DNA from: Alentia gelatinosa
Lineage: Eukaryota; Annelida; Polychaeta; Phyllodocida; Polynoidae
Length of the DNA stretch: 64,000 nucleotides
Reading direction: 5' to 3'
Assembly: GCA_950022655.1 (NCBI GenBank)
Contig: OX465589.1
Location: 25,907,626-25,971,625, forward strand
Both the position numbers and the translations under genes were made by a program. The notes under the pieces are model-generated. The model was not told the origin of the DNA. It searched no databases and worked only from the letters and a program-made list of their open reading frames with translations. Shown in pieces: positions 37,087-64,000 of this stretch (position 1 is the first letter of the stretch; the number at the start of each line of letters is the position of its first letter).

Positions 37087-40000
37087 TCACGTGTCCTCGG
37101 GTTCCAGTTCGGAGGGTAGAGAGGGTTGTCGCTGGATGTTGACGTAGAGCGGCTCGTCGCCGGCCGCGTCGTACTCGTTCTTACGTGGCGGGTTGACGAT
37201 CAGCTCGAGGCGGTTCACGAGATCCGTGAAGGTGGGGCGGTCGTCGGGGTTAGTGCGCCAGCATTCTGCCATCAGTTTGTACCTGTGGTGGGCAGTTAAT
37301 GAAACGTCACATTTATTACAAAGGTTGTAAACTGTGTATAACGTAAATAATCTTAAAAATCGTTTAAAAAAAAGACTTCCCTATATCTACTTCAAAAATG
37401 CTCACCGGGAATTGAAGTAGAATGGCGGAGAGATATTGAACACCGTTCTACATGTATTGTATTTTCTTTCTAGACACACACATACACGCGCACGCACGCA
37501 CGCACGCACGCACGCACGCACGCACGCACGCACGCACGCACGCACGCACGCACGCACGCACGCACGCACGCACGCACGCACGCACGCACGCACGCACGCA
37601 CGCACGCACGCACGCACGCACGCACGCACGCACGCACGCACGCACGCTTAACCTGCTTGCGTCACCTTCAGGTCATGGTTGTCATTTCGCTGTGATATGA
37701 CCCTAGCTATTGTTAACTTCAAAATCCTATCACATTCCAACTATTGCAGTTCTATCAAGTTCAGAGAGAAGTTCACTCCTCCCTGTTCTTTAGGCTAATT
37801 TGTAATCGATAGTAATACCCCTAGCCCTCTCCGACTCTTGCTATCTGGTACAAGTATGACAAATGACTAATTGCTCTCTATCCCAGGTAGACCAAGAATA
37901 TAGAGATGCCATAGAGACCGACAGCAAAAATTGCAAAGGTCCCATATATCTCCCCTTTTAACCAAACCCTCTTGTTCCCTTTAGGATTTTCACAAATCAT
38001 ATATTAACCTTATGGTGGTGGGGGCGGGGTGGGGGGCTGAAGTAGCCTGTAAACTGGAGGAGTGGAGGAGGCGTGAAGTTAGGTGGGTAACTTACGCGTT
38101 GTCCGGGCAGAACTTGGGCTGTCTGAGTCGTCGGCCCGACGCGAGGTAGTTCCGCATCTCAAAGGCGTCCACGTCCGGGTAAGGCGTCACTCCGCGGATC
38201 ATCAGCTCCCAGAGCAGGACGCCGAACGACCACTGTCAAACACCACCACAGTCATTACACGTGCACGCGCCACGCGCCGCGTACAACGGTACCGCCAACC
38301 TACTCACACTGACCACTTTTATAAACGAGACAGAATGGACTCGGAATCGTCAAATGAAAGGTTGATAACAAGCAGCAGACTTTTTATTTATTTATGTGGT
38401 CTATAGTTTTGTCTTAACTGGGTTACATGCCCTGGGCATTTTTTTTTTAAGATCGGAGTCAAACCCCACAGAATGCATTCAAAACATATGACCTATAATT
38501 ATTACATACCTATGTCCGAATGTCTATTAAATACTGCCCGCTGCTAGGGGTGCAGTAATGATGGCTGTGACTGCGACTTTGAATGTCATTTAAATGGTGT
38601 TTTTTTCACCAATTAAAGGTATATAATAATAAGCAAACGTCCTCACTGTAGACGAAATGGTTCTCGTTCTCGGTCAGTCATCGTTTTCATACTGCCTTCC
38701 GCCTATGGCGTCTGGCAGTATGAAATCGACGACTGACCTCGAACAGGAACCGTTTCGTCCACAGTAAGGACGTTTCCTAATATTATGATATATTTGGCAA
38801 AATGGGACAACTATCAATTAATAGAGATTCACAGCTTGTGAGGGCCATATAAAAGAAGTAAACTCTACCAGATACATATCTGGTATCACAATGATTTCCG
38901 TTGAATGATATCTGTTGCATTACTTGCAGCGATATTCCTTTTAATATAAATCATATAAAACACTTACCACATCAGACTTTGTTGTGAAAACATAGTCTTC
39001 CAAACTCTCTAGTGCCATCCATTTGATGGGCATCTTCCGTTTACGATCCACACTTGAAAAGTAGTCTTTTTCGTAGAGATCTTTTGACAAGCCAAAGTCG
39101 GCCACTTTGACTTGAGAATCCTCATCGACCCTAAAGAGAAGAAGGCAACAAATTTGTCATTTGTTTAAATGAGAAGTTCATCCGAATACGTTGCCAAAGC
39201 CATCAAATCACAATGATATGTAACAGGACAAGTAAGACAGGTCAGGACAAATGCAGACTTGTTCCTTCTTCAGGGATGCCAGTGAGGATCAGGAAAAATT
39301 CCTACATGGGGACTGAGGCCAGTCTATGTATCACCTAAAACGCACATGGTGTGTGGGGAATCCCCATCACTCTCCCAGCAGATCCTTGGGCATGGACTGG
39401 CAGTATAGGATAGCTAGATATCTGCTATGAGAGTGGGTATATGTGTAGTTCTGCACTAGATGGGGTACTCTTGAAAGAAAATCATTTAAGAAAGATTACC
39501 TCACACTATAAGTTTTATATTCTGCAGAATATCTTTACAAGTTCATTAAACATTCCTCTGATATTTTCTTTTAGACTTGGTAAAGCTGTAATAATGCTTT
39601 TCTCACAGGACATATTTTAAGCCAATCAGATGTCAGTATACAAGTTTGCCCTTATCCGTAGGAGCATTTCCCACAACAATCTGACCATCCTAAAGCTGTA
39701 GGTTGGAGCACTGGGATCAGTAAGCCCTGTAACTGAGTGTGCTGGGGGTAGCTGAATTCAGAATTTTTAAAGATTACAGAAAAGGTTTATCTAAGATTAG
39801 GATTTTAGGGAACCTGGAGTGTGTATTGTTCTCACAGCATACAATTTCTTGAAATTTTCATCTCTTTGAGACTAAAATGAAAATCCTACATGTAGGCAAA
39901 ATCCTACATACTGGCATCCCTGCTTCTTCTGTGTGGACTTGTAATTGTCTCATCTGTTCACACGAGAGACACTGAATCTGAACCATCTTTTACGCCATGA

Positions 40001-64000: not shown

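What the first reader, a model, noticed from the sequence alone, without database searches (positions are those of the whole stretch)
37087..64000. A receptor with a complete plexin ectodomain on a MET/RON-type kinase
Seen in sequence: 27 exons with consistent phases encode Sema, PSI, IPT, PSI, IPT, PSI, IPT, IPT, IPT, IPT, membrane segment and kinase. Known: vertebrate MET and RON have Sema-PSI-four IPT; plexins have the ten-module layout seen here, but carry a GAP-like cytoplasmic domain. Inference: this may be an ancestral or lineage-specific form in which a whole plexin ectodomain is joined to a MET kinase, the vertebrate receptors having later lost PSI2, PSI3 and two IPTs. I cannot tell from here whether this form has been described.
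Basis: partly seen in the sequence, partly recalled or inferred. Interest (0 to 1): 0.82.

Follow-up and report, generated by a model that had tools for sequence, protein, structure and literature searches.

The report
Plexin-headed MET-type receptor kinase gene
The window holds most of an invertebrate gene that joins the outer part of a plexin guidance receptor to a MET-type growth-factor kinase; this kind of receptor was already named Met-LP in 2019, so it is a well-preserved new example and not a discovery.

Summary
I too find 27 minus-strand exons (63999-37087): all 26 introns GT-AG, phases consistent, 1,439 residues, no internal stop. A profile made without the window hits 26 of 27 exons in order. 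The protein is the second half of a Sema domain (the gene runs past the window edge), PSI-IPT-PSI-IPT-PSI, four IPTs, a membrane helix and an intact tyrosine kinase. The ectodomain aligns in one stretch with plexin-A1; the kinase is closest to MET.

The architecture is not new: Junqueira Alves et al. 2019 named it Met-LP in an annelid, a mollusc and a starfish. This gene groups with an annelid Met-LP. Whether Met-LP is the ancestor of MET or a later plexin-MET recombinant stays open.

Not seen in the parts of that paper I read: all 14 mollusc-type Met-LP kinases examined have lost a catalytic aspartate, while annelid-type, echinoderm and sponge ones, this gene included, keep theirs; MET's IPTs correspond to plexin IPT3-6; a sponge model resembles Met-LP; arachnids and a nematomorph have MET.

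Probable mechanism: semaphorin-induced dimerisation, kinase trans-phosphorylation, signalling through a MET-like YVNI tail. The ligand is inferred.

The parts
60224..63999 (-). C-terminal part of the Sema domain (exons 1-3 and start of exon 4); N-terminal half and signal peptide lie beyond the window edge
   Evidence: Pfam PF01403 E 3.3e-13; profile hits on exons 1-3
59363..60223 (-). PSI1 (exons 4-5)
   Evidence: Pfam PSI; cysteine pattern [10 protein letters not shown]...CGWC
57075..59362 (-). IPT1 (exons 5-7)
   Evidence: module alignment with other Met-LP and plexins
56160..57074 (-). PSI2 (exons 7-9)
53292..56159 (-). IPT2 (exons 9-12); matches plexin-specific TIG_2 by whole-protein E
   Evidence: Pfam PF18020 E 5.5e-07, 30.5 bits, no stretch passing on its own
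53151..53291 (-). PSI3 (exon 12)
   Evidence: profile hit 58.6 bits
51024..53150 (-). IPT3 (exons 12-14)
   Evidence: Pfam TIG
48096..50540 (-). IPT4 (exons 15-16); holds a furin-like RHKR at 50409-50420, not seen in the P0001 or P0193 IPT4 segments printed
46798..48095 (-). IPT5 (exons 16-18)
44488..46797 (-). IPT6 (exons 18-20)
44389..44451 (-). single transmembrane helix, in one exon (20) with the end of IPT6 and the juxtamembrane stretch
   Evidence: best 19-residue hydropathy 2.96 against 1.41 for the next best outside this region
37207..42810 (-). tyrosine kinase domain (exons 21-27): catalytic Lys, alpha-C Glu, HRDLAARN and DFG all intact; activation loop KDYF (second MET tyrosine is Phe)
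   Evidence: Pfam PF07714 E 6.6e-92; catalytic residues
37135..37146 (-). YVNI in the C-terminal tail, like the YVN motifs in the tails of MET rows
   Evidence: docking role recalled for MET
37087..37282 (-). last exon (27) with stop codon at 37087-37089

Best explanation
The gene encodes a catalytically competent Met-LP receptor tyrosine kinase of a lophotrochozoan, most likely an annelid. Shown by sequence: plexin-type modular ectodomain (Sema cut by the window), one membrane helix, MET-family kinase with all catalytic residues examined, and a YVNI tail motif. Inferred: a semaphorin dimer, or another plexin-type ligand, binds the Sema domain and draws two receptors together; the kinases phosphorylate each other on the single activation-loop tyrosine (KDYF); phosphorylated YVNI then recruits Grb2-type SH2 adaptors as in MET, so a semaphorin-type cue would give a growth or motility output in place of a plexin GAP output. 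Membership in Met-LP: about 0.95. Active kinase: about 0.9. Semaphorin as ligand: about 0.55.
For: Exon model and profile support. Pfam domains. One-stretch match of residues 11-948 to plexin-A1 5l56. Kinase best matched to MET and RON. Kinase tree: window with P0001 and Paralvinella 100/99, inside a 45-row MET-family group at 94/96. Ectodomain trees: window in the lophotrochozoan Met-LP clade 100/99. K, E, D (HRD) and D (DFG) present. YVNI, YMNI or YVNF in the tail of 3 of 3 annelid-type rows, and a YVN or YIN motif in 6 of 7 MET/RON-type rows of that panel. Published class with this architecture.
Against: No transcript of this gene itself, no ligand or activity data. The Sema half outside the window could not be read. 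The second activation-loop tyrosine of MET is Phe here, so activation may differ from MET. The tail motif is not specific: a TYRO3 outgroup row has YIN and one Patiria row YVN, while the hemichordate MET row has none. MET-family membership of the kinase against TAM kinases rests on 85/57 and 83/59. The 2019 authors call the ligand unknown.
Confidence: 0.85

Rival explanations
1. Two neighbouring genes, a plexin-like ectodomain and a MET kinase, read as one by hand.
For: No transcript of this locus was available; several introns hold long tandem repeats.
Against: 26 of 27 exons hit one continuous profile in order; exon 20 joins IPT6, membrane helix and juxtamembrane in one frame; P0001 has the layout as a 1,654-residue ORF on a 7,538-base contig, and four further unnamed three-PSI relatives (P0211, P0232, P0271, P0277) do so on contigs of 4.9-5.5 kb. 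Contigs so short against a gene of over 26 kb look like transcripts, but the source type is not stated.
Confidence: 0.03
2. Met-LP is the ancestral MET-family form and the vertebrate-type MET arose from it by losing the block between Sema and PSI3/IPT3.
For: In 24 of 26 MET/RON-type rows an IPT4-best region is followed by an IPT5-best region, and IPT6 comes last in 22 of 26; C.WC-xxx-C spacing, found in 15 of 17 matched Met-LP PSI3s, is in 17 of 21 MET/RON rows with a matched PSI, vertebrate-type rows 10 of 10; a bivalve protein, P0217, has all ten modules but a kinase in the bivalve MET clade, 99/97; a demosponge model, P0076, has three PSI, IPTs and a kinase; single origin not rejected, p 0.21 and 0.095.
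Against: Ectodomain trees put Met-LP among plexins (99/97); with the sponge rows in, holding the four plexins together is borderline rejected, p 0.047. PSI assignment is ambiguous: PSI3 best in 14 of 26 rows, PSI1 7, PSI2 3, tie 1, none 1, and four invertebrate MET rows have spacing 5. The sponge Sema is not recognised by Pfam and only weakly by a Met-LP Sema profile, E 2.2e-06. The 2019 paper infers two later origins.
Confidence: 0.33
3. Met-LP arose later, and more than once, by joining a plexin ectodomain to a MET-family kinase (the published model, with the donor kinase now placed in the MET family).
For: Ectodomain near an insect plexin-A (93/93) but kinase with MET: discordant halves. 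Echinoderm Met-LP kinases lie apart from lophotrochozoan ones (45-row group without them 94/96). Published inference.
Against: One clade of lophotrochozoan and echinoderm Met-LP kinases is not rejected (p 0.28; annelid and echinoderm p 0.19), nor is MET without Met-LP as one clade (p 0.20). Few plexins in my ectodomain trees; slow ectodomains held by ligand binding would look plexin-like anyway.
Confidence: 0.5
4. An HGF-like or other non-semaphorin ligand drives this receptor.
For: MET and RON bind HGF and MSP through Sema-PSI (recalled; a PDB title names HGF beta chain with MET).
Against: The ectodomain is far closer to plexin-A than to MET. No direct test.
Confidence: 0.25

Closest known systems
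Met-LP RTKs (Junqueira Alves et al. 2019; annelid Capitella, mollusc Aplysia, starfish Acanthaster)
   Same: Plexin-type ectodomain plus membrane helix plus tyrosine kinase; same wide clade (Lophotrochozoa) as two of the three
   Different: Another gene record; intact catalytic residues, unlike the 14 mollusc-type Met-LPs examined here; first half of Sema not in the window. The 2019 sequences themselves were not in hand
MET / RON (HGF and MSP receptors)
   Same: MET-family kinase, YVN-type tail motif, Sema and IPT modules
   Different: MET has Sema-PSI-four IPT (best matching plexin IPT3-6); here there are two more PSI and two more IPT modules, and the activation loop has YF in place of YY
Plexins (A type nearest)
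   Same: Ectodomain module order and sequence, colinear with plexin-A1
   Different: Tyrosine kinase in place of the plexin GAP domain; no PF08337 hit
Paralvinella palmiformis P0193 and unnamed P0001
   Same: Closest relatives found: kinase 64 and 66% identical, same modules, catalytic residues intact
   Different: Activation loop YY in both; ectodomain only 29 and 28% identical

Membership tests
Met-LP RTK | complete plexin ectodomain: Sema, three PSI, six IPT | tested here: inconclusive
   three PSI and six IPT found in order; Sema only from its second half because of the window edge
Met-LP RTK | one membrane helix followed by a tyrosine kinase | tested here: met
   helix 993-1013, kinase 1139-1400
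Met-LP RTK | groups with other lophotrochozoan Met-LP | tested here: met
   kinase clade of 15, 99/93; ectodomain clade of 10, 100/99. Capitella and Aplysia Met-LP of the 2019 paper were not in hand
MET/RON | MET-family kinase | tested here: met
   PDB ranking, trees; split from TAM kinases only 85/57 and 83/59
MET/RON | truncated ectodomain Sema-PSI-four IPT | tested here: not met
   three PSI and six IPT
MET/RON | binds HGF or MSP | not testable with these tools
   needs binding assay
Plexin | intracellular GAP domain (PF08337) | tested here: not met
   absent; kinase in its place
Plexin | semaphorin binding | not testable with these tools
   needs binding assay; much of the Sema domain lies outside the window

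The most novel reading that the evidence does not exclude
Met-LP is the original MET-family receptor, older than the split of sponges and bilaterians; MET and RON are its shortened descendants; annelids keep an active, semaphorin-driven kinase, while in molluscs the same receptor has become a kinase-dead plexin-like co-receptor or decoy alongside an active short MET.
Probability: 0.2. Interest if true: 0.65.

Novelty: new member of a known kind. Interest (0 to 1): 0.36.

Why it matters
It gives a clean gene structure for a receptor class for which I found one paper. It ties a guidance-receptor outside to a growth-receptor inside, so annelid Met-LP would test directly whether semaphorins can drive a MET-type kinase. 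The contrast with the mollusc-type Met-LPs, 14 of 14 of which have lost a catalytic aspartate, makes a natural experiment on kinase-dependent and kinase-independent signalling from one ectodomain. The match of MET's IPTs to plexin IPT3-6 gives a concrete deletion model for the origin of MET.

Tried and rejected
Rejected: two-gene reading. Rejected: 'not described before'. Rejected: clean assignment of MET's PSI to one plexin PSI; scores are split. Left open: one or several origins of Met-LP. An ectodomain-only homology search gave 55 hits, of which 8 carry the plexin GAP domain and the rest are IPT-repeat proteins (the named ones mostly bacterial); none of the Met-LPs came back, because candidates are picked by shared exact words. 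Four of the 8 plexins were used in alignments and trees (P0121, P0122, P0123, P0126). Naming the organism failed because the window's own genome could not be searched. Structure prediction was not tried: the spliced protein is not a letter-for-letter reading of the window, and the nearest relatives exceed 1,200 residues. Two papers on sponge immunity and the holozoan tyrosine kinome (PMC8242945, PMC8662651; passages only) showed nothing on a sponge Met-LP.

Rows dropped or not tested: of 61 kinase rows, P0190, P0198 and P0202 were left out (58 rows), these three included, out (39 rows). P0232, P0250, P0265 and P0271 were left out of the ectodomain trees and P0262 never entered them; one search also left out P0211, P0217, both sponge rows and five MET rows. 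P0257 and P0280 are in the residue table but in no tree. P0040 (truncated) is in that table but not in the 12 of 12. The 26 MET/RON-type rows are a chosen subset of those retrieved.

A regular expression found only two PSIs in four of the 14 mollusc-type rows (P0256, P0257, P0279, P0280); a PSI2 profile finds a cysteine-poor PSI2 in all four (26.8-39.7 bits).

Full report
What is there. All 26 introns are GT-AG, the phases fit throughout, and the 1,439-residue product has no stop before its end. To test this without my own hand in it, I built a profile from 13 relatives without the window and ran it on 2,883 six-frame ORF pieces of 15 residues or more. It hit 26 of 27 exons, ordered by profile end from 365 to 1603, beginning at position 242; exon 10 had no hit; the one off-target hit below i-E 5 was the antisense of exon 20 at 0.81. 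The gene therefore starts outside the window: about 240 positions, the signal peptide and first half of Sema, are missing. Exon 15's donor and exon 7's acceptor have close alternatives. Tandem repeats of 4 and 101 bases lie in introns.

Domains. Pfam gives PK_Tyr (6.6e-92), TIG (2.6e-36), PSI (5.6e-16), Sema (3.3e-13) and the plexin-specific TIG_2 (5.5e-07), and no plexin GAP domain at E 0.001. Alignment with other three-PSI proteins and four plexins places PSI1, IPT1, PSI2, IPT2, PSI3 and IPT3-6. The ectodomain matches plexin-A1 in one stretch, residues 11-948 to 247-1173, E 1.4e-106; full-length MET reaches 9.1e-38. The kinase matches MET at 324 bits, RON at 300 and MER at 273; one EGFR construct heads that list because its chain holds two kinase copies, each about 192 bits.

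Is it known? Yes. Junqueira Alves, Yotoko, Zou and Friedel (Sci Rep 2019, PMC6374515; abstract, passages found by term, and section 12 read; supplement not seen) describe 'Met-like with plexin ectodomain' in Capitella, Aplysia and Acanthaster, infer two independent origins, report no Met or Met-LP in Ecdysozoa and call the ligand unknown. It is the only paper in the held library with both 'Met-LP' and 'plexin'. Preprints and most subscription journals are not covered.

Relatives. Three protein searches gave P0001 (unnamed source; 34% over the whole query; one ORF on a 7,538-base contig), Paralvinella palmiformis P0193, a run of molluscs mostly annotated as plexin-A2-like, plexin-A4-like or HGF receptor, the sea star Patiria, the brittle star Amphiura, and a demosponge model, Halichondria P0076. 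One search scored 7,982 candidates, and only the best 120 hits are listed (of 368 and 1,270). Kinase identity to the window: P0001 66%, Paralvinella 64%, lamprey MET 55%, mollusc-type Met-LP 37-47%; ectodomain identity 28% to P0001 and 29% to Paralvinella. The sponge model has three PSI, IPTs and kinase, but Pfam sees no Sema in it; a Met-LP Sema profile matches that region weakly, E 2.2e-06.

Trees. Kinases (58 of 61 rows): window, P0001 and Paralvinella 100/99; with the mollusc-type Met-LPs 99/93; together with MET inside a 45-row group at 94/96; echinoderm Met-LP just outside it; the whole MET plus Met-LP set without the sponge only 85/57. Without mollusc-type and other rows (39 rows) the annelid-type three stay together at 100/100, but their place within MET is unresolved and the split from TAM is 83/59. 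Ectodomains (34 rows; 25 rows): lophotrochozoan Met-LP one clade 100/99, next to an insect plexin-A at 92/92 and 93/93; Met-LP and plexins together against MET at 99/97. Constraint tests: kinases of all Met-LP (without P0217) as one clade p 0.146, without sponge 0.28, MET plus all Met-LP against other kinases 0.43; annelid plus echinoderm Met-LP 0.19, MET alone 0.20; plexin ectodomains as one clade 0.047 with four plexins, 0.21 with three, 0.095 in the reduced set. So the two halves tell different stories, and the data do not settle one origin against several. The closest named relative is an annelid, so the window's animal is probably an annelid; its genome could not be searched.

How MET relates. 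Module profiles from 22 rows (18 Met-LP, 4 plexins) scored on 26 MET/RON-type proteins: an IPT4-best region is followed by an IPT5-best one in 24 of 26, IPT6 comes last in 22 of 26, and the first IPT, where hit, scores best as IPT3 or IPT4. No region scores best as IPT1 or IPT2; that point is weak, since those two profiles are poor (on Potamilus P0217, which has all ten modules, IPT1 scored 6.5 bits and IPT2 nothing above 5). The PSI scores best as PSI3 in 14, PSI1 in 7, PSI2 in 3, with one tie and one without a hit. The short spacing C.WC-xxx-C, found in 15 of 17 matched Met-LP PSI3s and in no matched PSI1 or PSI2, is in 17 of 21 MET/RON rows with a matched PSI, in the vertebrate-type rows 10 of 10 (one of unnamed source); the hemichordate and three gastropod METs have spacing 5. 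If MET came from a Met-LP, a block including IPT1 and IPT2 and two PSIs was lost. P0217 pairs the full ectodomain with a bivalve-MET kinase (99/97), which fits an ancestral full form, or a further recombination.

Catalysis. The window keeps the Gly loop, VAVK Lys, alpha-C Glu, HRDLAARN and DFG. The activation loop reads KDYF where P0001 and Paralvinella have YY. In the mollusc-type Met-LPs, 14 of 14 rows (10 from named molluscs, 4 unnamed; 12 of them in the tree clade, two scored without a tree) have lost at least one catalytic aspartate: HRD Asp is Asn in 12, and the two scallops keep it but have Gly for the DFG Asp. Annelid-type 3 of 3, echinoderm 12 of 12 complete rows (11 of them from one sea star) and the sponge model are intact; so is P0217, the mollusc three-PSI protein whose kinase falls with MET. 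The named MET/RON rows of the table are intact; the unnamed P0046 has His in DFG. The main text of the 2019 paper does not hold the words pseudokinase, inactive or kinase activity, and a search for pseudokinase with plexin, mollusc and receptor tyrosine kinase showed, by title, no paper on this among the ten listed of 45. The tail motif YVNI, YMNI or YVNF is in 3 of 3 annelid-type rows and a YVN or YIN motif in 6 of 7 MET/RON-type rows, but also in a TYRO3 outgroup row; of 10 mollusc-type rows 7 have YLEV or YLDV and 3 neither.

Mechanism. Shown: architecture, intact catalytic residues, tail motif, relatives with the layout in one ORF. From established knowledge (recalled): plexin Sema domains bind semaphorin dimers; MET signals after activation-loop phosphorylation through C-terminal YVNV/YVHV docking sites. 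Inferred: that this receptor is dimerised by a semaphorin and signals through Grb2-type adaptors.

Verdict. A real and well-formed gene; a new member of a published class. The parts I would follow are the split between active annelid-type and apparently inactive mollusc-type Met-LP kinases, the sponge model, and the IPT3-6 correspondence.

Noticed in passing
P0211, P0232, P0244, P0250, P0254, P0256, P0257, P0259, P0262, P0265, P0271, P0277, P0279, P0280: All 14 of these mollusc-type Met-LP kinases have lost the HRD or the DFG aspartate, so they look like pseudokinases, although most of the named ones are annotated as HGF receptors or plexins.
   Followed up: partly
P0213, P0214, P0223, P0246: MET-type receptors in ticks, a spider and a nematomorph; the 2019 paper reported none in Ecdysozoa. 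The two tick proteins show a repeated IPT4-IPT5 pair.
   Followed up: partly
P0076, Halichondria panicea: A sponge gene model has three PSI, IPTs and a tyrosine kinase; its Sema is barely recognisable, its kinase is placed without support between MET and TAM kinases, and its C-terminus is cut.
   Followed up: partly
P0217 (Potamilus streckersoni): A bivalve protein with the full ten-module ectodomain but a kinase of the bivalve MET clade.
   Followed up: partly
window 22810-26906, + strand: CUB domain (2.4e-18) followed by proline-rich repeats, and a trypsin fragment (3.5e-11): probably a CUB-serine protease gene on the opposite strand.
   Followed up: partly
window 50409-50420, - strand: Furin-like RHKR within IPT4 of the predicted protein; near an uncertain splice donor and not seen in P0001 or P0193.
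   Followed up: no
window 51327-52000, 53353-53650, 52624-53126, 37489-37647: Large intronic tandem repeats of 4 and 101 bases.
   Followed up: no
P0204 (Branchiostoma belcheri): MET-like kinase joined to integrin-type domains in one gene model; may be a model error.
   Followed up: no
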